Origin: Vreelandella nigrificans
GTDB taxonomy: Bacteria; Pseudomonadota; Gammaproteobacteria; Pseudomonadales; Halomonadaceae
Reading direction: 5' to 3'
Assembly: GCF_002374315.1 (NCBI RefSeq)
Contig: NZ_NWUX01000006.1
Span: 62,001-126,000 of the forward strand
DNA: 64,000 bases
Both the position numbers and the translations under genes were made by a program. Below the pieces are notes generated by a model. It worked only from the letters and a program-made list of their open reading frames with translations. It did not search any database and was not told the DNA's origin. Shown here in pieces: positions 31,903 to 42,140 of the stretch (its first letter is position 1; each line of letters starts with the position of its first letter).

Positions 31903-31998
31903 TACCCCACCTAAAAAGACTTATGTATAATTAGCAGACACTTACTAAACTGAACCATTTACTTCTCTTAGTGTTAAGGTAAAACCACTTATAGAACG

Positions 31999-32472
31999 AT
32001 GGAGAAAGTCGCTTTGAACACATCTACCGTTACCAACGGCATCACCGCCACCGAGCTATATAATTTAGTAAGCCAACCAGCTTCCAGCAGTAGTGAAAAC
32101 GCTAGCCTTGAGTGGCCCCAGGCCACGATTAGCCTGGATGAAACAAACCAGACGCTAATCTGGGAGCTTCATGATTACGGCAACTTGCCGATTACCCTGT
32201 CGCGAAGCGAAAATGAGTGGATAGCGATGGCACCTATCGTTGCCGTAGAGAGCATCACGAATACTGTCGAGCTGAACGAAGTTCTGCTACGCCAGGGTAT
32301 TTCATTACCACTGGCATCTGTTGGTATTGTCGAGATCGATGGCCACGATTTTTATGTGGCTTACGGGCAGCTATTTGGCGATTCCAAACTTGAATCAATC
32401 TGCGCGGAACTACACGCTACAGCAGGTGCTGCGATGGAAGTTGCCGAACTGATACAAACGCATTTCGTTTAA
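31999..32472 (+). CDS. yjfI: DUF2170 protein, YjfI-like
   Basis: Soluble acidic protein of up to 157 aa, matching in size and position the YjfI/DUF2170 family that heads the yjfIJKLMC operon of E. coli. No catalytic motif is visible. The ATG at 31999 has no ribosome site. A TTG at 32014 is preceded by GGAGAAAG and may be the real start. The next gene is a PspA homologue, 82 bp away. Role unknown; the context points to a membrane-stress complex. Confidence 0.75.
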   Translation: MEKVALNTSTVTNGITATELYNLVSQPASSSSENASLEWPQATISLDETNQTLIWELHDYGNLPITLSRSENEWIAMAPIVAVESITNTVELNEVLLRQGISLPLASVGIVEIDGHDFYVAYGQLFGDSKLESICAELHATAGAAMEVAELIQTHFV

Positions 32473-32479
32473 CGTATAC

Positions 32480-32494
32480 AATAGATTATCTATT
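32480..32494. promoter_or_regulatory. 15-bp palindrome between yjfI and yjfJ
   Basis: AATAGAT-T-ATCTATT is a perfect palindrome just after the yjfI stop. It could be an operator for an internal promoter of the pspA-like gene, or a weak RNA hairpin. No matching regulator is recognised. Confidence 0.45.
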
Positions 32495-32554
32495 ATCAGT
32501 GCCACTGTTATTAACTAATGTCGCTATCGCGGTGACATATAAGTGAGATCAATT

Positions 32555-33250
32555 ATGTTAAGCAAAATTATGACGGCCCTGCGTGGTAAAGCCAATGAAA
32601 CCGGCCAAGCGGTCGTAGACTCGCAAGCACTGCGTATTTTAGACCAGGAAATTCGCGATTCAGAAAACCACCTTAGTAAATCCAAAACGGAACTCACCCG
32701 CCTGATGGGGCTGCGTCAGCTAAACAGCAATAAAGCGGACACACTAGAAAGTAAAATTACTGAGCTGGAAAAAAGTGCTGAAGCTGCTTTAGATAAAGGC
32801 GAGGAAGCACTGGCGATGGAAGTCGCTGAGCGTATGGTAGCACTACAGGATGATCTTGAAGCCGAGCGTGCAATTGTGGGCGAGTACGATGCCAGCATCG
32901 AAAAACTGCGTGGCGCAATTCGTAGTACCGACAACCAACTGCGCCAGCTTAAGCAACAGGTTAGTGTAGTTAAAGCCACTGAGTCTGCACAAAAAGCGCA
33001 ATCCGCCGTAGCTGCTCGTCACTCGGGCCAGAACAGCGCCATGAGCAGTGCGATGGAATCACTAGAGCGCATAAAAGAGCGCCAACAACTTAACTCTGCG
33101 CAAATGCAAGCTGCCGACGATATGGCCGCAGAAGAGAGTGGCAGCTCACTGGAGGCACGTCTTAAAGCGGCGGGCATCGGCGGTTCACAGCGAAAGGCGG
33201 ATGACGTGCTGACTCGTCTCAAAGCCAAGAAGAACACTACCCAGGAATAA
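32555..33250 (+). CDS. yjfJ: PspA/IM30 family protein, YjfJ-like
   Basis: Protein of 231 aa, almost entirely helical and charged, with long coiled coils (about residues 25-140). This is the build of PspA/IM30/Vipp1 membrane-remodelling proteins of the ESCRT-III superfamily. The N-terminus (MLSKIMTALRGKANETGQAV) is an amphipathic helix suited to membrane binding. It has a C-terminal tail ending in DDVLTRLKAKK. The ATG at 32555 is chosen for its N-terminal match to the family over a GTG at 32543. It follows yjfI and precedes a K+ channel-like gene. Confidence 0.88.
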   Translation: MLSKIMTALRGKANETGQAVVDSQALRILDQEIRDSENHLSKSKTELTRLMGLRQLNSNKADTLESKITELEKSAEAALDKGEEALAMEVAERMVALQDDLEAERAIVGEYDASIEKLRGAIRSTDNQLRQLKQQVSVVKATESAQKAQSAVAARHSGQNSAMSSAMESLERIKERQQLNSAQMQAADDMAAEESGSSLEARLKAAGIGGSQRKADDVLTRLKAKKNTTQE

Positions 33251-33287
33251 TCCGTACGACCACCCAAACAACTAACCCACTGATGTT

Positions 33288-33310
33288 GCCCGCCGTCTAT
33301 ATCGGCGGGC
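33288..33310 (+). other. GC-rich RNA hairpin upstream of the channel gene
   Basis: GCCCGCCG (33288-33295) and CGGCGGGC (33303-33310) form an 8-bp perfect stem with a 7-nt loop. No T-run follows, so it is not a standard terminator. It lies between the pspA-like gene and the GTG used for the channel gene. It may limit read-through or protect the upstream message. Confidence 0.65.
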
Positions 33311-33330
33311 CTAGTTCAAAGGGGCATCCA

Positions 33331-34410
33331 GTGCCTGTTTTTTTACGTCTGATCAAGGCGCTTCAGGCGTCTACGATCAAAGTTAGTTGGACATTTCTGT
33401 TCTTGATGGTGGTTTGCCATTCGGCTCTATCCTGGGCCTTCATGGCACTAAGCAATGAAGCGGTTGCAAACACGCTGGGGACATGGGTGTATTTTTACGT
33501 CACCACTGCCACGACTGTGGGTTACGGTGATTACAGCCCAGTCACACCGGGTGGACAATGGGCCGCCGCCTTATGGGTAATTCCTGGCGGCATTATATTG
33601 TTTGCCAGTTTGATCGGCAAAGCTACGGCTAATATTAGTTCAACATGGAGAATGCTGGTGCAAGGCAACGCTAATTACAGCAGCCTTTGCGGGCATACGC
33701 TTGTCATCGGTTGGCACGGTGAGCCAACGGCTCAAATTATTCGCATTCTGCAAGCCGACCCAAATCTTCCCGATGATATAGTGCTATGCGTGACTAAAGA
33801 TATCGACAATCCATTGCCTGGCAGCATCAAATTTGTCAAAGGTGATAGTTTCTCGAATCCGGAATTGCTGGCACGTGCCGGAATTCAGGGAGCCAATCGG
33901 GTCATTATCTACGATGAGGCCGATGAGCGTGTGGCCACTATTGCTTTGTCGGTTTTTGATCAAAAGCCCCCCAACTGCCATGTTGTCGCTCACTGCGATA
34001 ATCCTGCTACAGCCAACATGTTGCGCCGCACATTGCCAGGCATAGAGTGCACCCAAGGTCTATCGATTGAGATGCTGGTTCGTTCTGCGACTGATGCGGG
34101 CATCAGTCGTGTGGTCAATGAGCTGCTCGCCATTGATCACGGCGCAACCCAGTTCCAAGGGTGCTTGCCCGATACTCTACCGGCCGATCAAAAGGTTTGC
34201 TACGGAGAGCTGATGAACCTAGCAAAATCACGTGACAACGTGACACTACTGGGCGTATGGCGACCCTCTACTCAAACTCAGCAACTGCTCAACCCACCGG
34301 CTGATTTTATGGTGGGCAAAGGAGATACCCTTTATTACATGGGTAATAAACGACTGACCGAGGAAGAACTTACTACCTTGTTTATGTCTGCCGTCCAAGG
34401 AGCTAGCTGA
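33331..34410 (+). CDS. potassium channel-like protein with TrkA-N/RCK-type domain
   Basis: Protein of about 359 aa. Two hydrophobic helices flank a pore loop with the K+ selectivity filter TTVGYGD. A cytoplasmic nucleotide-binding RCK/TrkA-N-like region follows (LVIGWHGEPTAQIIRIL, a second strand block, IIYDEADERVATIALS). A GTG at 33331 is used because AAAGGGG lies 7 bp before it. The ATG at 33283 would place the GC hairpin inside the gene. Its stop overlaps the yjfK start (TGATG). The E. coli yjf operon has no channel gene at this place. The product probably links ion flux or membrane potential to the PspA-type response. Confidence 0.8.
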   Translation: MPVFLRLIKALQASTIKVSWTFLFLMVVCHSALSWAFMALSNEAVANTLGTWVYFYVTTATTVGYGDYSPVTPGGQWAAALWVIPGGIILFASLIGKATANISSTWRMLVQGNANYSSLCGHTLVIGWHGEPTAQIIRILQADPNLPDDIVLCVTKDIDNPLPGSIKFVKGDSFSNPELLARAGIQGANRVIIYDEADERVATIALSVFDQKPPNCHVVAHCDNPATANMLRRTLPGIECTQGLSIEMLVRSATDAGISRVVNELLAIDHGATQFQGCLPDTLPADQKVCYGELMNLAKSRDNVTLLGVWRPSTQTQQLLNPPADFMVGKGDTLYYMGNKRLTEEELTTLFMSAVQGAS

Positions 34411-35123
34411 TGTTTAAGACGCTTAAAACACTATTTCGCGCTACTACCGCTCCACAAGAGCAACCTTCCCAAACTTCCCCAGGCTTACCCATAGGCATTT
34501 CCTCGGAGATGCTGGAAGGCCTGCGTTTGGATGGCCGCGTCAATATTAAGCTAATAGGCCTACGTGCCCACCAGGATGCACTATTTAGCTGGGACGATGA
34601 TGCCTATCATCACATTGCTGCCGTGGGCCACGTTGATTTAGGTCAGGGGGCTCACCTAGTTCGCTTTTATTTAGATAATGACACTTGGCTACAGGCTAAT
34701 ATTGAGCATGGTCAGGTACTTGAATATAAGCTGTTTGACTTTTACCGTGTCGCCCATCTTTCAGACGCTGAGTTTGACAGCATGATTAACGGTGAAGATA
34801 AAAAGCCTGACAGCATCGGTGCTCACACCGTTACACTTGCAGCAACATCGGAAGAAGCAAGGACCTGCACCTATCAACGGGTATGGGGTAATAGCGATAG
34901 CCTTTGGTCTCCGCCAGTGGTATTTGAAGAGCAAGTCATGACAACAGAGAGTGTGATGACACGCTATGTAACTCATCATGTAATGCTGTATGAGCGCACT
35001 ATCGAAGATTCTGAGCGTATGGAGTATTTACTGTTGAGCGCTGAAAACGATGGCGAAGGCGGTTATATGCTAGTGCAAAATGTGGGTGTGGATATTGCTT
35101 CTGTTGATATTGATGCAATCTGA
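34410..35123 (+). CDS. yjfK: DUF2491 protein, YjfK-like
   Basis: Soluble protein of 237 aa of the YjfK/DUF2491 family, recognised by size, position and composition. Distinctive blocks are LDGRVNIKLIGLRAHQDALF and VGHVDLGQGAHLVRFYLDND. There is no signal peptide, membrane helix or known catalytic motif. It overlaps the channel gene by one base (TGATG), which suggests coupling. Function unknown. Confidence 0.75.
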   Translation: MFKTLKTLFRATTAPQEQPSQTSPGLPIGISSEMLEGLRLDGRVNIKLIGLRAHQDALFSWDDDAYHHIAAVGHVDLGQGAHLVRFYLDNDTWLQANIEHGQVLEYKLFDFYRVAHLSDAEFDSMINGEDKKPDSIGAHTVTLAATSEEARTCTYQRVWGNSDSLWSPPVVFEEQVMTTESVMTRYVTHHVMLYERTIEDSERMEYLLLSAENDGEGGYMLVQNVGVDIASVDIDAI

Positions 35124-35194
35124 AACTTCCGAGCTGTTATTAAACGCTATCTCTTACAAGCGATACTTTTAAGCTATAAAAGGAAACAACCACC

Positions 35195-35608
35195 ATGGTG
35201 AACTACCTCTACGGCTTGCCGTCATTTCTTGCCTATTTAGTGACTGCGATTGCACTACTCGTCGCCTTTATGTATTGCTACAGCCGTATTACCCCCCACC
35301 ACGAGTGGACGCTGATCCGCGAAGGCAATTCTGCCGCAGCAGCGGCATATGGCGGCTCTATTTTAGGTTTTACGATTCCGTTGTATAGCGCAATGGCGCA
35401 CTCCATCAGCTTTATCGATTTTGTGCTCTGGGGTATTGTTGCCTTTATCGTGCAGTTAGCCACCTTCTTCGCGGTTAAGCTGTTTCTGCGCAAACAGGGC
35501 GAAAGTCTTTCCCAGCACATCACCGAAGGCCACCATGCCTATGGCATTCTGATGGCTAGTGTTGCGATAGCCGTCGGCTTGCTCAACGCCGCTTCGATGA
35601 CGTGGTAA
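35195..35608 (+). CDS. yjfL: DUF350 membrane protein, YjfL-like
   Basis: Membrane protein of 137 aa with four hydrophobic helices, the size and layout of the DUF350/YjfL family. A conserved-looking segment, LIREGNSAAAAAYGGSILGFTIPL, lies between helices 1 and 2. AAAGGAAAC lies upstream of the ATG. DUF350 genes often sit next to ATP-grasp glutathionylspermidine synthase-like genes, as here. Function unknown. Confidence 0.85.
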   Translation: MVNYLYGLPSFLAYLVTAIALLVAFMYCYSRITPHHEWTLIREGNSAAAAAYGGSILGFTIPLYSAMAHSISFIDFVLWGIVAFIVQLATFFAVKLFLRKQGESLSQHITEGHHAYGILMASVAIAVGLLNAASMTW

Positions 35609-35622
35609 AGGAGAAAGTCGGC

Positions 35623-36264
35623 ATGTCTAAACACGATCAAACACCGCATTTGCCGCGCCGTAAGCGCAGCGCGCGTTTGTCATTAGCAGTGATGGGCGCG
35701 GGCGCTTTTGGCCTTACCGCCTGCGGTCAACCACCGCAGGAAGAGCAAATAACCGAAGTAAGATTCGACGAGCCACGTAGCTTCCAAAGCGTCGAAGAGT
35801 GTGTAGCCGCAAATATCTATACCCGCAGCGCCTGTGAAGACGCCTACTCAGCCTCATTAGAAGCAGTGCCACGCTTCAGCACCCTTGAAGAGTGTGAAGC
35901 CGAGCACGGCGAAGGCGCTTGTACCGCCCCAACCGAGGCGCAAGCACAAGCGGCCACCGGCAGCAGCGGCGGTAGTTGGTTTATGCCCGCTATGATGGGT
36001 TACATGGTTGGCAGCATGATGTCTAACACCAACCGTGGCCGCTCCTTTGAGCGAGTTTATCAGGAGCCTGTGTACCGAAACCGCCAGAATCAGGGCAACT
36101 GGAACACCGCCTCGACCCAAGCCACTCAGCGCGTGACTCAACGTAATGAAGCAATGCGTAGCTCGGTAGTTCAGAACCGCCAAGCAGCTCAGAGTCGCCA
36201 AGCGAGTACTCAGCGCAGCGGTTTCGGCTCACGCTCTTCAGCACGGGGTGGCTGGGGCTCCTAG
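35623..36264 (+). CDS. yjfM: DUF1190 lipoprotein-like protein, YjfM/YgiB family
   Basis: Protein of 213 aa with a basic start, a hydrophobic stretch and a lipobox-like GLTAC. Two repeats of a Cys-bearing segment (SVEECVAANIYTRSACEDAY and TLEECEAEHGEGACTAP) follow, then a Met/Gly-rich helix and a Ser/Gln/Arg-rich tail ending in GGWGS. This is the DUF1190 layout of YjfM and YgiB. The ATG at 35623 has AAAGGAG upstream. The repetitive tail might be the target of the ATP-grasp ligase encoded next door; that is inference. Confidence 0.8.
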   Translation: MSKHDQTPHLPRRKRSARLSLAVMGAGAFGLTACGQPPQEEQITEVRFDEPRSFQSVEECVAANIYTRSACEDAYSASLEAVPRFSTLEECEAEHGEGACTAPTEAQAQAATGSSGGSWFMPAMMGYMVGSMMSNTNRGRSFERVYQEPVYRNRQNQGNWNTASTQATQRVTQRNEAMRSSVVQNRQAAQSRQASTQRSGFGSRSSARGGWGS

Positions 36265-36279
36265 CCAGCTAACACTATC

Positions 36280-37446
36280 ATGCTGCGAATCGACATTCCT
36301 GAGCGAAACAACTGGAAAGCCCTAGCCCACGAGCTGGGCTTTCATTTTCATACCATTGGCGGGGAGCCCTACTGGAAAGAAGACGCCTACTACCAGTTCA
36401 CCATGGAACAGGTAGAACAGGACATTGAAGCCCCCACTGAGGAGCTACATGAAATGTGTATGGAGTTGGTAGATAAGGTCTGCCACTCCAACGCGCTAAT
36501 GCAGCGTCTGTCACTACCGGAGCATATGTGGGACAGCATCCATCATTCGTGGAAGTCGGGACAACCGCACCTCTATGGACGAATGGACTTTGCCTATTCC
36601 GGCACAGGCCCTGCGAAGCTGTTAGAGCTTAACTACGACACCCCTACCTCACTGTATGAAGCGGGCTTTTTTCAGTGGGTGTGGCTGGAACAAGCCATTG
36701 AGCAAGGCATCCTTCCGCGCCATGCGGATCAGTACAACTCGATCCAGGAGCGGCTGATCAATGCCATGGCACACCTTGGCGACCGAATCGAAGCGCGCAC
36801 GATGCACTTCTCCTGCATCAAAGATAATGCTGAAGAGCGTGCCACCGTGCACTACTTGCAGGATGTGGCGGTACAGGCAGGCCTAAAAGCCCCATTTATC
36901 TACACGGAAGATATTGGCCTGCGAGCAGGCATGGATCACTTTGTTGATCTGGATGATAAGCCCATTCATGCCCTGTTCAAGCTCTACCCCTGGGAAGAAA
37001 TGGCCGACGACGACTTTGGCGAGCAGATCCCACAGCTCAACACCCACTGGTTTGAACCGCCCTGGAAAGCCATTCTTTCTAACAAAGGGATTCTCCCTCT
37101 GCTGTGGGAACACTTTGAGGGTCACCCTAACCTATTACCGGCGTTTTTCGAGAACGCTAGCAGCCCGCCGTTGCCTGCCGGATGGGTACGCAAGCCCTTC
37201 TTCTCCCGGGAAGGTAGTAACATAGAGTTAATCACGCCATCAGGACAACGTGAAGCGGTGGATGGGCCCTATACCGATAGTCCATGGATTCGCCAGGCAT
37301 ATCACCCAATGCCGAGGTTTGGTAATAACCACGCCTTAATCGGCAGCTGGGTCGTCGGTGATCGCGCCTGTGGGATGGGCATTCGTGAAGATGTAGGTCG
37401 CATCACCAAAGACTCCTCCTGCTTTGTACCCCACGCTATCGTATAA
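36280..37446 (+). CDS. yjfC: glutathionylspermidine synthase-like ATP-grasp ligase, YjfC
   Basis: ATP-grasp ligase of 388 aa with only the synthetase domain and no N-terminal amidase. Visible are GRMDFAYSGTGPAKLLELNYDTPTSLYEAG (substrate and ATP region near residue 110), LFKLYPWEEM, and the late block RKPFFSREGSNI with the Lys, Glu and Asn expected for ATP and Mg binding. It is the last gene of the yjf set and the partner of the DUF1190 gene, as with YgiB-YgiC. The family probably joins a peptide or protein C-terminus to an amine such as spermidine. True glutathionylspermidine synthase activity should not be assumed. Confidence 0.85.
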   Translation: MLRIDIPERNNWKALAHELGFHFHTIGGEPYWKEDAYYQFTMEQVEQDIEAPTEELHEMCMELVDKVCHSNALMQRLSLPEHMWDSIHHSWKSGQPHLYGRMDFAYSGTGPAKLLELNYDTPTSLYEAGFFQWVWLEQAIEQGILPRHADQYNSIQERLINAMAHLGDRIEARTMHFSCIKDNAEERATVHYLQDVAVQAGLKAPFIYTEDIGLRAGMDHFVDLDDKPIHALFKLYPWEEMADDDFGEQIPQLNTHWFEPPWKAILSNKGILPLLWEHFEGHPNLLPAFFENASSPPLPAGWVRKPFFSREGSNIELITPSGQREAVDGPYTDSPWIRQAYHPMPRFGNNHALIGSWVVGDRACGMGIREDVGRITKDSSCFVPHAIV

Positions 37447-37652: not shown

Positions 37653-39680
37653 ATGATCGCGCGCTGGAAATCCCTGCCACTACGGCTACGGCTATTTATC
37701 TCTTTTGGGACGGTTTTAGCGTTCGCAATGCTCTTGGCACTCTACCTTCAAGCGCGCTCCCATAGCCAAGAGCGCCTGGAGAACCTGATTAACCATGAGC
37801 TCCCCGCGCAAGTTGAGGGGCTGGCCACGCACATCAACCTACGCTTAAGCCCAGCCCTTGCCATCTCAGAAAGCCTAGCGAACAGCTACTTTATTGAACA
37901 GTGGGTACAAAATGGGCTGGATGAAGAGCAACAGGTAGATGTTATTCGCTATCTATCACGCCTAATGGGCCAGCTCGATACTGAGCTGATGTTCATCGTC
38001 GCCCAGTACCAAGGCAGAGGCTACTACTTTCAGCTCCGTGACGGTGAGCTTTTGCAGCGCTCCTTGCTCGCCCCAGGAGGAAACGATGACTGGTACTACC
38101 AGTTCATTGATAGCAACGACGATTACAACCTAAATCTAGACAGCGATACCTTCTCGCCCGAGGATGCATTTGTCTATCTCAATTACCGCGGCAGAGAAAT
38201 GGCGGCCAACAACCGCCCTCTTGTGGTGGCCGGTGCCGGGCTTAACCTGTCACATATGGCTCAACTGATCGAAGATTATCGACTTGGTGACACAGGCCGT
38301 GCAGCCATCCTAAGCGCCGAAGGCGAGTTATTAATTCGCAGCGATGAAACCAATATATCAACATTAAAAGAGCAAGAAGCTGAACAACTGTTCATTACTG
38401 ACCGCGAGATTCACGTAAGAGAGGTTCAGCGCGATGGGCAAATTTACTTTATTACAACCCGCTGGCTACCCGAGCTACAGCGCTATCTACAAGTAGAAGT
38501 ATCTAAGAGCGAGTACACCGCTACTACCCGTGAGCGCTTCTTGGCTTCTATCGGCTTGGGGCTAATTATTTTAGTGGTCGGACTAATGGTTCTATATCCC
38601 TTAACCGGCAGTCTGATCCGCCCCCTGACACGCTTCCAACGCCAACTAAAAGAGATTACCCATAGCCTAGACTTATCACGCCGGGTAGACACCGATGATC
38701 GCGCAGAGCTAGGCGACTTAGCCGCACAAACCAACGAGTTGCTGGCACGTCTTTCCCGGGCGATTGCTGCAGTGTCAAATAACTCTTTAGCCCTTACCCA
38801 AGTAGCCGATCGACTGGCACAAACCGCAGGGCTTTCCGGTGTTCAAGGCGGAGATATTAGCCACGAAGCCAATCAAACCATGGCCGCAGCAGTGGAAGAA
38901 ATGGCATCTTCGGTGGCCGAAATCACTTCAACTATGGAGGAGCTCTCGACCTCGTCCACCCAAATTGCCGATCACTCCCAATCGGTTGTCGATGTTGCCA
39001 ACCAAACGCTGGAGCGTAGCCGCAAAGGCAGCACAGCCATGCAACTGCTGCAGGCTAAAATGCAGGACATCCGCAGCGACAGCGAGCAAAGCCTCTCTGA
39101 GATTATGACGTTAGGCGCTAAATCCAAACAAATCAGTAAGGTAATGGAGCTGATCAATACCCTTGCTGCACAGACCAAACTGATCGCGTTTAATGCCGCT
39201 TTAGAAGCCTCGAGCGCAGGGGAGTCTGGGCGACGTTTTTCGGTTGTGGCCAATGAGATTCGCCGCTTAGCCGATAGCGTGACCGATTCTACCCAGGAGA
39301 TTGAGGGTCATACTGATGAAATTCAACAGGCCATCAACCGCTTAGTGGTTGCCTCTGAAAAAGGAGCAACCTCAATAGAGCAGGGGGTAGAAGCTAGCAT
39401 CAGCACTGCACAAGACTTGGAAGCGCTGCTTAAGGCCGCTAGTCAAACCAGTAGCGCTGCCCAGCAAATATCGCTCTCCACACAGCAGCAGAAAACAGCC
39501 AGCAATCAGGTCGTGATTGCACTGCGTGATATTGATACTGCCAGCGCTCGTAATGCTCAATCCGTGCGCAGCATTACCGACATTAGCCAAGATATGATTC
39601 TGATGTCTACAGAACTGAATGATCTCGTCCAGGAATTTACACTGGCACAACATAACAATAATCAACAACGCCCTTCCTGA
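37653..39680 (+). CDS. methyl-accepting chemotaxis protein of a Wsp-like system
   Basis: Chemoreceptor of 675 aa. TM1 covers about residues 14-32 and TM2 about 295-318. The periplasmic part of some 260 aa is probably a double Cache domain (PEDAFVYLNYRGREMA, LGDTGRAAILSAEGELLIRSDE). HAMP follows (LIRPLTRFQRQLKEI), and a long helical signalling domain has its tip around TLAAQTKLIAFNAALEASSAGESGRRFSVVANEIRRLA. It begins an operon of cheB, cheR, cheA, a diguanylate cyclase and two cheW genes, the content of a Wsp system. It is larger than WspA of Pseudomonas. Confidence 0.9.
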   Translation: MIARWKSLPLRLRLFISFGTVLAFAMLLALYLQARSHSQERLENLINHELPAQVEGLATHINLRLSPALAISESLANSYFIEQWVQNGLDEEQQVDVIRYLSRLMGQLDTELMFIVAQYQGRGYYFQLRDGELLQRSLLAPGGNDDWYYQFIDSNDDYNLNLDSDTFSPEDAFVYLNYRGREMAANNRPLVVAGAGLNLSHMAQLIEDYRLGDTGRAAILSAEGELLIRSDETNISTLKEQEAEQLFITDREIHVREVQRDGQIYFITTRWLPELQRYLQVEVSKSEYTATTRERFLASIGLGLIILVVGLMVLYPLTGSLIRPLTRFQRQLKEITHSLDLSRRVDTDDRAELGDLAAQTNELLARLSRAIAAVSNNSLALTQVADRLAQTAGLSGVQGGDISHEANQTMAAAVEEMASSVAEITSTMEELSTSSTQIADHSQSVVDVANQTLERSRKGSTAMQLLQAKMQDIRSDSEQSLSEIMTLGAKSKQISKVMELINTLAAQTKLIAFNAALEASSAGESGRRFSVVANEIRRLADSVTDSTQEIEGHTDEIQQAINRLVVASEKGATSIEQGVEASISTAQDLEALLKAASQTSSAAQQISLSTQQQKTASNQVVIALRDIDTASARNAQSVRSITDISQDMILMSTELNDLVQEFTLAQHNNNQQRPS

Positions 39681-39690
39681 GGACGCTTTG

Positions 39691-40761
39691 ATGAGTGCAA
39701 TTCGGGTGGTGATAGCAGACGACAGTCAATTATCGCGTGCTGTGCTACGCGATATACTCACTCGTGATGGTGATATTGAGATTATCGGCGAAGCGGCTAA
39801 TGGCCGTGAGGCTGTTGACATGGCGAGACGCCTTGCACCTCAGTTGATCACCATGGATCTGAACATGCCGGTGATGGACGGGCTTAGCGCTATTGAAGAG
39901 ATCATGCACACTAAGGGCGTGCCAATCCTGGTAGTTAGCGACCGTTCTGATGCACAGACAGCTTACCGGGCCCTGGAGGTTGGTGCCCTTGAGGTACTGC
40001 CTAAACCGACCATTGATGAAGAGGATGCCGAGCGGCTCCTGGAAAGGGTCCGGCTGCTTTCAGGTGTGGCGGTAATTACTCGACTGCGGCGCCGCCCAAC
40101 ATCGCCCTCCCCATTGCCCACCGCCATACCTCCGTTACCATCTAGCCCCAACAGAGCAGCGTCTCGTGCCTTTCAGCGCGTTGTCGCCATCGCTTGTTCA
40201 ACAGGCGGGCCGCAGGCACTCGCTCGCCTACTGAGTAAACTGCCAGCAGGTTTTCCAGCCCCCATTATGATAGCTCAGCACATTAGTCATGGCTTTATAG
40301 AGGGTATGGCAACCTGGCTGGGCTCACTATGCAGCCTGCCAGTTAGCGTCGCCCAGGATGGCGAGCGTATCCGACCCGGGTGTATTTATCTCTCGCCCTC
40401 CGAGTGTAATCTTTGTGTAACTTCTCAGCACCGCCTTCGGCTAGAGGCAAGCCCTAAGGGTGCCCTTTATCATCCTAGTTGCGATGCACTTTTACACAGC
40501 GTTGTCAGCGTGTATGGCACCGATACAATTGGCGTTATTTTGACGGGCCTGGGCCGTGACGGCGTGAGCGGCATGCGTGCCATTCACTTGGCTGGAGGCA
40601 CAACATTTGCCCAAAACGAAGCGAGCTCTGTAATCTACGGCATGAATCAAGAAGCTGTAAATTCAGGTGTTGTCCAGCATGTTATTGCTTTAGATGACCT
40701 ACCTAGCCGGCTGCTGCGCGAGGTTCGCTTCCATCATTCCTCCTGCCGGGTACCCCGATGA
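39691..40761 (+). CDS. cheB: protein-glutamate methylesterase CheB (WspF-like)
   Basis: Receiver plus methylesterase protein of 356 aa. The phospho-acceptor is Asp56 in ITMDLNMPVMDG, and the conserved Lys lies in LPKPT. The C-terminal esterase has its triad in ACSTGGPQAL (Ser), IAQHISHGF (His) and TGLGRDGVSGM (Asp). GAGGA lies 7 bp before the ATG at 39691. In Wsp systems loss of this enzyme raises c-di-GMP output. Confidence 0.92.
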   Translation: MSAIRVVIADDSQLSRAVLRDILTRDGDIEIIGEAANGREAVDMARRLAPQLITMDLNMPVMDGLSAIEEIMHTKGVPILVVSDRSDAQTAYRALEVGALEVLPKPTIDEEDAERLLERVRLLSGVAVITRLRRRPTSPSPLPTAIPPLPSSPNRAASRAFQRVVAIACSTGGPQALARLLSKLPAGFPAPIMIAQHISHGFIEGMATWLGSLCSLPVSVAQDGERIRPGCIYLSPSECNLCVTSQHRLRLEASPKGALYHPSCDALLHSVVSVYGTDTIGVILTGLGRDGVSGMRAIHLAGGTTFAQNEASSVIYGMNQEAVNSGVVQHVIALDDLPSRLLREVRFHHSSCRVPR

Positions 40762-42140
40762 GTACGCTTGCGCTCTTTAAGCAACTGGTGCATCAGCGCT
40801 GTGGGCTACACCTAGAAGGGCTTGCGGAAGCGCGACTAGTGAAAGCGGTGGCGCTACTGCGTACGCGAACAGGAATTCATAGCCCTACATTGCTGATTAG
40901 CAAGCTGGAGCAAGATAGCCCCCTTTTTGATTACTTCATCAGTCAATTAACGGTCAACGAAACCTACTTTTTTCGTGAGCCTGAAGCACTAAACTGGCTG
41001 GTCAATACACATTTACCCAAGCTCCTGGTGAACAAAAATGCACCATTGTCTATTTTAAGTGCAGGTTGCTCCTCGGGCGAAGAACCTTATAGCCTCGCGA
41101 TAGCGCTTTACGAACGTTACGGTGAACGCGCCAAACAGCTTTTTCATATTACCGGTGGCGATGTTGACCAGCAGGTACTTGATAAAGCCCAGGCTGGAAT
41201 TTATGGAGGCATGGCATTTCGCGCCCTTCCCTCATCGTTAAAGCTACGCTATTTCTCAGCGGAGGGCAGGCGCTTCAAGTTGCTTGATACATTACGGCAA
41301 TGGGTCACCTTTTGCTCATTTAACCTACTAGATCACAACGCGCAGGCACTAGGTGGCCCGTTTGATGTGATTCTATTCCGTAATGTCTCCATCTATTTCG
41401 ATGAGGCTACCCGCCGAGCGATCCAGCAGCATCTGAAGCAACTGCTCACCCCAGATGGTATTTTGCTATGTGGCGTTACCGAAACGCTTGGTAACGACTT
41501 GGGCGTGCTAGAGATGGTTGAGGAACATGGCCTGTTTTATTTTCGTGACCACGCCGGGCCGACGCACTCACCTGTCTCTTCTAGCATGCCCACTGTAACC
41601 AGCACGCCAACATCCACTTGCCACTCAGATATCGACGACAAATCAATTCACTCTTGCCCAGTTCCTCCCCCTGGAGATGCTGGCAGCCAGACAAACGTGA
41701 CGTCTAAGGACTTTCACGACACACTGCATCAAGCCAACGATCTGTTAAACCAGAGCAGTTTTACCGCGGCCCGAAACCTGCTCGAACCGCTACTCGTTGA
41801 GCAACCTTGGAGCGTAGACGCCCTTCTACTCGCCGGCCTTGTAGCCCGCTGGCAGCAGCAACCCCAGCAGGCATTCGACTATTTTAAACGAGCGCTATAC
41901 GTAGCTCCTGAGTGCTGGCCTGCACACTTTTATCAGGCCGAGTTGCTGCGTTTAGGCGAGTTAACTGGTAACGCTGCCCAGCGCCAGCGTGGTTACGCCG
42001 CCGTGGTACGCCTGCTGGAGTCATCCCCTCAGGCAGACGGTGCGCTGCAAGTGATATCCCCGCCGTTGCCACCAGGTGATGCCTGCTTTCTCTCCAAGCG
42101 TTACTTAAGCGAGCAAACCGCCATACAGGGAGTTGGCTAA
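40758..42140 (+). CDS. cheR: CheR methyltransferase with C-terminal TPR-like region (WspC-like)
   Basis: Protein of 460 aa whose ATG overlaps the cheB stop (ATGA). The methyltransferase half has the receptor-binding N-terminus, LTVNETYFFREPEAL and the SAM site SILSAGCSSGEEPYSLAIAL, then FDVILFRNVSIYF. A low-complexity Ser/Pro/Thr linker (about 270-320) leads to helical TPR-like repeats (NDLLNQSSFTAARNLLEPLL, LVARWQQQPQQAFDYFKRAL). That fusion is typical of WspC and other non-motility CheR proteins. Confidence 0.92.
   Translation: MSTLALFKQLVHQRCGLHLEGLAEARLVKAVALLRTRTGIHSPTLLISKLEQDSPLFDYFISQLTVNETYFFREPEALNWLVNTHLPKLLVNKNAPLSILSAGCSSGEEPYSLAIALYERYGERAKQLFHITGGDVDQQVLDKAQAGIYGGMAFRALPSSLKLRYFSAEGRRFKLLDTLRQWVTFCSFNLLDHNAQALGGPFDVILFRNVSIYFDEATRRAIQQHLKQLLTPDGILLCGVTETLGNDLGVLEMVEEHGLFYFRDHAGPTHSPVSSSMPTVTSTPTSTCHSDIDDKSIHSCPVPPPGDAGSQTNVTSKDFHDTLHQANDLLNQSSFTAARNLLEPLLVEQPWSVDALLLAGLVARWQQQPQQAFDYFKRALYVAPECWPAHFYQAELLRLGELTGNAAQRQRGYAAVVRLLESSPQADGALQVISPPLPPGDACFLSKRYLSEQTAIQGVG

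What the first reader, a model, noticed from the sequence alone, without database searches (positions are those of the whole stretch)
31999..37446. yjf-type membrane-stress locus with an inserted K+ channel
Seven consecutive genes encode DUF2170, a PspA/IM30 protein, a two-helix K+ channel with a TrkA-N-like domain, DUF2491, DUF350, a DUF1190 lipoprotein-like protein and an ATP-grasp ligase. E. coli has the same order (yjfIJKLMC) but no channel gene. A sensible model is a membrane-associated complex in which PspA detects membrane damage, the channel adjusts potential, and the ligase joins a polyamine or peptide to a target such as the repetitive DUF1190 tail. The functions of most parts are unknown.
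Basis: partly seen in the sequence, partly recalled or inferred. Interest (0 to 1): 0.7.

Follow-up and report, generated by a model that had tools for sequence, protein, structure and literature searches.

The report
Polyamine ligase, tail protein, potassium channel
A known seven-gene membrane-stress operon that here keeps a potassium channel missing from laboratory E. coli; its enzyme, reported to join spermidine to small peptides, sits beside a membrane-anchored protein with a conserved C-terminal tail, a likely natural target that can be tested.

Summary
All seven genes are present in order. The operon is in print with its channel: PMC11237479, section 19 read. Channel and ligase tree distances correlate (r=0.97, 39 loci). 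All 38 same-genus genomes with the channel also hold DUF2491, though in 17 the channel lies elsewhere.

New here: the DUF1190 protein ends in a conserved tail (window RSGFGSRSSARGGWGS; elsewhere RGGFG...GG). In a phylum sample 48 of 57 stand-alone ligases have a tail gene within 400 nt upstream, 56 of 57 in the locus; in 17 that gene has no Pfam DUF1190 match. Glutathionylspermidine synthetases: 0 of 10; other ORFs: 10 of 392. DUF1190 copies away from a ligase lack it (4 of 4). In phage and plasmid records 17 of 20 loci have it, 11 directly upstream. The tail's C-terminus is therefore the likeliest natural substrate of the ligase: inferred, not shown.

The parts
31999..32472 (+). DUF2170 (YjfI/BacA type, CesT/Tir-like chaperone fold according to PMC11237479)
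   Evidence: Pfam PF09938 79.7 bits, cut-off 27
32555..33250 (+). PspA/IM30 protein (YjfJ type)
   Evidence: Pfam PF04012 145.7 bits; far below the classical PspA equivalog TIGR02977 (20 against 243 bits)
33288..33310 (+). Hairpin GCCCGCCG-TCTATAT-CGGCGGGC between pspA and the channel; similar hairpins are kept in some channel-less relatives
   Evidence: read in the sequence; similar hairpin in L037, L039, L040 without channel and in channel-bearing loci such as L038, L042, L045, L046; absent from most other channel-less Halomonas loci
33331..34410 (+). Two-helix K+ channel with an RCK-type cytoplasmic domain (start GTG 33331)
   Evidence: PF07885 43.6 bits; MthK over residues 32-356, E 4.5e-12; start by alignment
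33514..33531 (+). Selectivity filter TVGYGD
   Evidence: in 51 distinct channels T, both G and D are invariant, with Y in 32 and F in 19
34410..35123 (+). DUF2491 (YjfK type), beta-rich fold
   Evidence: PF10679 115.6 bits; AlphaFold2 mean pLDDT 86.5; no PDB match at E<=0.001
35195..35608 (+). DUF350 membrane protein (YjfL type)
   Evidence: PF03994 139.1 bits
35623..36264 (+). DUF1190 membrane-anchored protein (YjfM type), lipobox-like LTAC, conserved LxLxMG anchor segment
   Evidence: PF06693 108.7 bits; alignment
36214..36261 (+). Conserved C-terminal tail RSGFGSRSSARGGWGS of the DUF1190 protein: proposed ligase substrate
36280..37446 (+). YjfC/YgiC-type ATP-grasp ligase
   Evidence: PF03738 501.8 bits; PDB 7uk8 YgiC E 6.6e-130 and 7uk6 YjfC E 1.2e-128; catalytic positions kept

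Best explanation
The locus is a membrane-stress operon built round a protein-tail modification. The ATP-grasp enzyme (YjfC type) activates the C-terminal carboxylate of the conserved tail of the neighbouring membrane-anchored DUF1190 protein and joins it to a primary amine of spermidine or another polyamine, before or during export of that protein. This puts a polycation on the end of a flexible envelope arm. The K+ channel, DUF2491 and DUF350 form the membrane part that this arm serves or reads, and DUF2170-PspA is the stress-sensing and assembly dyad. Shown here: gene order, conservation of the tail next to the ligase, co-inheritance of the channel with the ligase. Taken from literature (title only): peptide-spermidine ligase activity of E. 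coli YjfC and YgiC. Inferred: that the tail is the substrate, that spermidine is the amine, and that the product acts on the channel or membrane.
For: Tail gene next to the ligase: 48 of 57 stand-alone ligases in the phylum sample (own included) within 400 nt upstream, against 0 of 10 bifunctional glutathionylspermidine synthetases and 10 of 392 other ORFs; 56 of 57 when divergent, downstream and displaced genes are counted by hand. In 17 of the 57 the tail gene has no PF06693 match. The four DUF1190 hits not near a ligase lack the tail. 39 of 40 genomes with PF06693 also have PF03738. Protein-level constraint: pN/pS of the last 16 codons 0.126 against 0.284 for the rest of the gene in 44 Halomonas sequences, 0.118 against 0.420 in 9 Enterobacteriaceae. 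Plasmids: 9 of 10 loci read, 7 upstream and 2 downstream; phages: 8 of 10, 4 directly upstream and 4 with one or two genes between. Phage Motura encodes homospermidine synthase, tail protein and ligase in a row. Channel: r=0.968 with the ligase over 39 loci; phages LAh_8 (channel, tail protein, ligase) and DSS3_VP1 (channel, ligase) pair them again. The genome encodes spermidine synthase and AdoMet decarboxylase families.
Against: No biochemical test. The tail belongs to an exported or anchored protein while the ligase shows no export signal by eye, so timing is a problem. The terminal residue is not fixed: of 48 upstream tails 37 end in G, 10 in S, 1 in E, and the window ends in S. In Enterobacteriaceae the last codons GGA GGT/GGC can double as a ribosome-binding site for yjfC (codons). 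Two DUF1190 genes beside a ligase run past the motif: L073 (Citrobacter sedlakii) and L118 (G275). Ligases L217 and L262 have no tail gene in the stretch read, and L126 and L131 of the class sample show none in short stretches. 30 of the 55 named loci have the operon without the channel, so the channel is dispensable for whatever the ligase does. The tail genes without a PF06693 match share an LMG-like anchor by eye, so they may be distant relatives and not independent proteins.
Confidence: 0.55

Rival explanations
1. The tail is a docking or export signal for another partner (DUF350, a chaperone, the ligase as a scaffold), and the ligase makes a small peptide-spermidine metabolite, as its relative makes glutathionylspermidine.
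For: E. coli YjfC and YgiC are reported as peptide-spermidine ligases (title seen in reference lists); that small peptides were the substrates tested is recalled. DUF350 also accompanies the tail gene in loci that lack DUF2491 (for example L241-L245).
Against: The ygiBC-type loci show only tail gene and ligase of the seven families in the stretches read, so the ligase is the one constant partner. Glutathionylspermidine synthetases lack the tail gene upstream, 0 of 10.
Confidence: 0.2
2. The tail is the substrate but the amine is not a free polyamine: for example phosphatidylethanolamine or another envelope amine, so the protein is anchored at both ends, as in LC3 lipidation by its C-terminal glycine.
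For: Gly-rich C-terminus, often Gly-Gly; a membrane-anchored substrate; D610 of glutathionylspermidine synthetase is not kept in the 8 stand-alone ligases aligned (its role in spermidine binding is recalled).
Against: Reported spermidine ligase activity; polyamine genes beside the ligase in phage Motura and in operon variants described in PMC11237479.
Confidence: 0.12
3. The genes are a co-regulated stress operon without molecular coupling; channel and ligase work separately.
For: Many operons lack the channel (30 of 55 named loci); in 17 of 53 other same-genus genomes with DUF2491 the channel lies elsewhere.
Against: All 38 same-genus genomes with the channel keep DUF2491; correlated trees; channel-ligase pairs recur in two phages of different groups.
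Confidence: 0.13

Closest known systems
PspA operon with CesT/Tir dyad, ATP-grasp and K+ channel (third group of Ravi et al. 2024, PMC11237479)
   Same: Same seven components, channel included (section 19).
   Different: That section gives no C-terminal tail, no tail-to-ligase link and no account of channel loss in E. coli; DUF1190 is called a metal-chelating lipoprotein there. I did not read the rest of the paper or its tables.
E. coli yjfIJKLMC and ygiBC
   Same: Same families and order; an E. coli yjfC in the plasmid collection is 51.7% identical to the window ligase.
   Different: K-12 lacks the channel; ygiBC has only tail protein and ligase.
MthK-type RCK channel
   Same: Two helices, TVGYGD filter, homology over nearly the whole chain.
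   Different: Residues at the MthK calcium site (numbering recalled) are Y, H, D in the window; only the last is acidic.
Glutathionylspermidine synthetase/amidase
   Same: ATP-grasp core; positions R316, D318, E330, N332, E391, K498, K533, R598 invariant in the nine sequences aligned.
   Different: No amidase domain, about 388 residues; neighbouring tail gene instead.
P. aeruginosa bacA-F operon (PMC10948618)
   Same: Starts with DUF2170 and PspA.
   Different: The authors find no spermidine synthase homologue in or around it and propose a sigma54 site; none found here.

Membership tests
Third-group PspA operon of Ravi 2024 | DUF2170 (CesT/Tir) next to PspA | tested here: met
Third-group PspA operon of Ravi 2024 | ATP-grasp ligase related to glutathionylspermidine synthetase | tested here: met
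Third-group PspA operon of Ravi 2024 | K+ channel, DUF350, DUF1190 and DUF2491 in the same run | tested here: met
Third-group PspA operon of Ravi 2024 | one transcript | not testable with these tools
   gaps of 14 to 82 nt and one 1-nt overlap within the run; no RNA data
YjfC/YgiC peptide-spermidine ligase | sequence homology over the whole chain | tested here: met
   E 6.6e-130 and 1.2e-128 to the solved YgiC and YjfC chains
YjfC/YgiC peptide-spermidine ligase | conserved ATP-grasp catalytic positions (roles recalled) | tested here: met
YjfC/YgiC peptide-spermidine ligase | ligase activity | not testable with these tools
   no biochemistry
RCK K+ channel | K+ selectivity filter and RCK homology | tested here: met
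   TVGYGD; MthK match E 4.5e-12; TrkA_N alone is below its cut-off
MthK calcium-gated channel | acidic calcium site (D184, E210, E212; numbering recalled) | tested here: not met
   window Y194, H221, D223 by the alignment; in 51 channels the first is D in 5 and the second is H or Y in 48
Classical Psp system | PspA equivalog and sigma54 promoter | tested here: not met
   TIGR02977 20 against 243 bits; no -24/-12 match with up to 2 mismatches at 31903-31998
DUF1190 | Pfam PF06693 over cut-off | tested here: met
   108.7 against 22 bits

The most novel reading that the evidence does not exclude
A polyamine-bearing protein tail works as a tethered regulator of the K+ channel: the ligase attaches the polyamine to the tail of the anchored protein, and the charged end blocks or gates the channel or its lipid surroundings under membrane stress. 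Phages have taken the same module of channel, tail protein and ligase.
Probability: 0.12. Interest if true: 0.88.

Novelty: new variant of a known kind. Interest (0 to 1): 0.62.

Why it matters
YjfC and YgiC enzymes are widespread and have solved structures, and I know of no identified natural substrate (from recall; not searched exhaustively). A conserved C-terminal tail on the neighbouring protein, kept even where the rest of that protein escapes the DUF1190 model, gives a concrete candidate. If right, it would mean a polyamine modification of a protein C-terminus in the bacterial envelope, tied in many operons to a K+ channel and to PspA, and also carried by phages. It also corrects the view that E. 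coli K-12 has the full operon: it has a reduced one.

Tried and rejected
Insertion of the channel in this genome: rejected, since the channel is widespread at this place and losses are visible. Calcium gating as in MthK: site not kept. Sigma54 control as proposed for bacA: no site upstream. Function of DUF2491 from its fold: good model, no PDB match at E<=0.001; the weak matches (E 0.02 and above) include lipocalin-like, PR-10/START-like and porin chains, so the porin-like reading in PMC12492005 (passages seen) is neither supported nor excluded. DUF1190 fold: no PDB match at E<=0.001. Ribosome-binding site as the sole cause of the terminal Gly-Gly: unlikely, because 8 of 9 tail genes that do not precede a ligase also end in Gly-Gly (L153, L158, L159, L160, L162, L165, L267, L268; L156 ends GT).

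How the motif was chosen and counted: the pattern was made after seeing Halomonas, E. coli and class-level tails, so the phylum count is partly post hoc. A first, looser-distance pass over 119 distinct ligases (many of them Halomonas) found it near 102, with 15 of 3804 background ORFs; the 17 misses were read one by one. The relaxed pattern was then applied unchanged to 10 plasmid and 10 phage records picked by organism before their tails were read (10 of 147 and 10 of 131 records); there I counted the whole fetched locus (17 of 20), and 11 of 20 for the upstream position. Phage record L256 may be a bacterial contig and L261 is marked unverified. Dropped before the phylum count: two PF03738 rows of 69 (G458:C2 fragment with a stop, G582 below cut-off). 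L201 was filed as bifunctional by an over-long ORF and moved to stand-alone. The recount from 48 to 56 of 57 was made by reading the nine misses. In the pN/pS test L073 was left out by hand because its gene runs past the motif, and L033 and L065 have no DUF1190 on their contigs; the filter on the last four residues dropped none of the 44 Halomonas sequences. The 13 of 16 figure for channel beside DUF2491 comes from loci reached through PF06693 or PF03738, so DUF2491 loci without these would be missed, and one of the 13 (L236) has a short channel ORF.
Full report
Observation. The window lies in a genome of the Halomonas/Vreelandella group (inferred from the named relatives). Seven + strand genes at 31999-37446 encode DUF2170, PspA/IM30, a K+ channel, DUF2491, DUF350, DUF1190 and a GSP_synth ATP-grasp ligase. 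The channel most likely begins at GTG 33331: relatives start MPV or MPI, and AGGGG stands just before it. An 8-bp hairpin (33288-33310) lies between pspA and the channel. The ligase matches the solved E. coli YgiC and YjfC chains (7uk8, 7uk6) over its whole length, and positions R316, D318, E330, N332, E391, K498, K533 and R598 of glutathionylspermidine synthetase are invariant in the nine sequences aligned, two of them from phages (the roles of these residues are recalled). The channel matches MthK over nearly its whole length, but the MthK calcium site is not kept.

What is known. Section 19 of PMC11237479 (read in full; other passages) describes this operon, K+ channel included, as the third group of CesT/Tir-PspA operons. 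[quoted passage not shown] 2023, which I saw only in the reference lists of PMC12568646 and PMC10948618 (passages); the paper itself is not held. RefSeq names both proteins peptide--spermidine ligase. For P. aeruginosa bacA, PMC10948618 (abstract, part 1 of the results, section 3.5, part 1 of the discussion, passages) reports a DUF2170-PspA operon with a biofilm phenotype. PMC12492005 (passages) reports yjfIJKL strongly up in heat-evolved E. coli.

The channel is an old member, often lost. Among 55 named loci with DUF2491, 25 have the channel between PspA and DUF2491: 19 of 45 Halomonas/Vreelandella and 6 of 10 Enterobacteriaceae; the 4 that lack it are all Escherichia. In RefSeq complete E. 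coli genomes 13 of 5426 hold the channel and 5322 of 5426 hold yjfK; in the one read, yjfJ, channel and yjfK overlap, whereas K-12 has a 50-nt gap with a hairpin. In Halomonas, channel-less L039 and channel-bearing L046 share the 30 nt after pspA up to the end of a hairpin, as expected after loss, though the hairpin could serve pspA itself. In 82 same-genus genomes, own included, 38 have the channel and 54 DUF2491; all 38 have both (Fisher p 7e-11, not corrected for kinship). Of the 53 other genomes with DUF2491, 20 have the channel adjacent, 17 elsewhere (two of these fragmentary) and 16 not at all. The ten displaced channels read (L098-L107) nest beside the operon channel of L059 (tree drawn without support values), so they probably left an operon. 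In the phylum sample 13 of 16 DUF2491 loci that I could read have the channel directly upstream of DUF2491; those of G466, G605 and G004 do not. Over 39 loci holding all seven families the channel distances correlate with the ligase at r=0.968, against at most 0.209 in 500 permutations, and within 19 Halomonas loci at 0.974; other pairs of operon genes correlate about as well.

The tail. The DUF1190 proteins end in a short motif after a variable low-complexity stretch: GFGSRSSARGGWGS in the window, GYGRSSSARGHWGG in K-12 YjfM. Looking at ligases whose neighbour is not recognised by the DUF1190 model, I found the same kind of ending on the small anchored protein beside them. In 299 genomes of the phylum, own included, PF06693 is in 40 and PF03738 in 61; 39 of the 40 have both. 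Of 67 PF03738 hits kept, 57 are stand-alone and 10 bifunctional. With the relaxed pattern (R[GSQ]G[FYW] or GG[FYW]G in the last 40 residues), 48 of 57 stand-alone ligases have a tail gene within 400 nt upstream, 0 of 10 bifunctional ones do, and 10 of 392 other ORFs do (with the strict pattern 41 of 57, counting L201, and 8 of 392). Reading the nine misses: four have it in a divergent operon (G466, G602, G605, G638), three downstream (G522, G623, G636:C160), one displaced by inserted genes (G459), and one has none (G636:C126). So 56 of 57, and in 17 of the 57 the tail gene has no PF06693 match; these share an LMG-like anchor by eye and may be distant relatives. The four DUF1190 hits with no ligase beside them (one in G436, three weak ones in G534) lack the tail. 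Against this, two DUF1190 genes beside a ligase run past the motif (L073, and L118 of the class sample).

Protein-level constraint. Over the last 16 codons pN/pS is 0.126 (44 Halomonas) and 0.118 (9 Enterobacteriaceae, L073 left out) against 0.284 and 0.420 for the rest of the gene; synonymous sites vary freely, pS 0.58 and 0.47. For comparison the whole ligase gives 0.197 and 0.142. The AlphaFold2 model of the DUF1190 protein has pLDDT under 50 at residues 1-38 and 198-206, consistent with a loose end.

Independent records. In plasmids the ligase is found in 147 records; of 10 read, 7 have the tail gene upstream, 2 downstream and 1 (Photobacterium, L262) none. In phages it is found in 131 records (some, such as large Salmonella contigs, are bacterial); of 10 read, 4 have the tail gene directly upstream, 4 with one or two genes between, and 2 none in the stretch read (L253, L261). 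For L253 (DSS3_VP1) a gene at 170-424 of the record ends GGFGRSATASRGGSFGG; the ligase ends at 74745 of 75087, so the two would be neighbours if the record is circularly permuted. Phage Motura has homospermidine synthase, tail protein, ligase in a row. Aeromonas phage LAh_8 has a 124-residue K+ channel with TIGYGD, then DUF1190 with tail, then a ligase annotated in two parts; roseophage DSS3_VP1 has an RCK-type channel with TVGYGD directly before the ligase. A tblastn of the window channel against phages at E 1e-4 finds DSS3_VP1 (two records) and one Salmonella contig only, and misses the short channel of LAh_8, so how common the pairing is in phages is unknown.

How it most likely works. The ligase joins a polyamine to the C-terminus of the tail; the genome has spermidine synthase and AdoMet decarboxylase families. 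The product is a membrane-anchored arm with a positive end. PspA and DUF2170 most likely bring the response to damaged membrane, and the channel with DUF2491 and DUF350 is the membrane part served by the arm. Only the gene facts are shown; chemistry, topology and coupling are inferred. The main difficulty is that the tail is predicted to be exported while the ligase looks cytosolic, so modification should precede export.

Novelty. The operon is known and the ligase activity is reported. A tail as natural substrate was not seen in the listings (4 papers; 11; 30 of 78 listed; 1), nor in the passages read; most listed papers were not opened. Iyer et al. 2009, recalled as relevant, is not held, and subscription papers are mostly missing, so priority is uncertain.

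Noticed in passing
L253 (MN602266.1) 1502-2488 and L260 (NC_048775.1) 1576-2498: Phages encode a K+ channel right beside the ligase, in LAh_8 with the tail protein between; annotated as hypothetical and as Kef-type transporter.
   Followed up: partly
L272 (MN602266.1) 170-424: Small phage DSS3_VP1 gene ending in the tail motif at the start of the record, opposite end from channel and ligase.
   Followed up: partly
L255 (phage Motura) 803-3628: Homospermidine synthase, tail protein and ligase genes in a row in a jumbo phage.
   Followed up: partly
L098-L107: A solitary copy of the channel between unrelated genes in Halomonas genomes whose yjf operon lacks it; Vibrio alginolyticus plasmid NZ_OK146920.1 shows a similar split.
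   Followed up: partly
L073 8520-9176: Citrobacter sedlakii DUF1190 gene runs past the conserved motif (SARGSWGANHAAT).
   Followed up: no
L217 (G636:C126): A second stand-alone ligase in a genome, without a tail gene nearby; it may use the tail of the other locus.
   Followed up: no
L035, L052: Halomonas genomes with the yjf operon broken into several ORFs, either decay or sequencing error.
   Followed up: no
window 37653-42140: Chemotaxis-type genes (methyl-accepting protein, CheB-like, CheR-like) directly downstream on the same strand, judged by reading the translations only.
   Followed up: no
L113 (G307) and L044, 5' of the channel: Only a short PspA piece (6216-6410 in L044) and no DUF2170 are found upstream of the channel: dyad lost or truncated while channel, DUF2491, DUF350, DUF1190 and ligase remain.
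   Followed up: no
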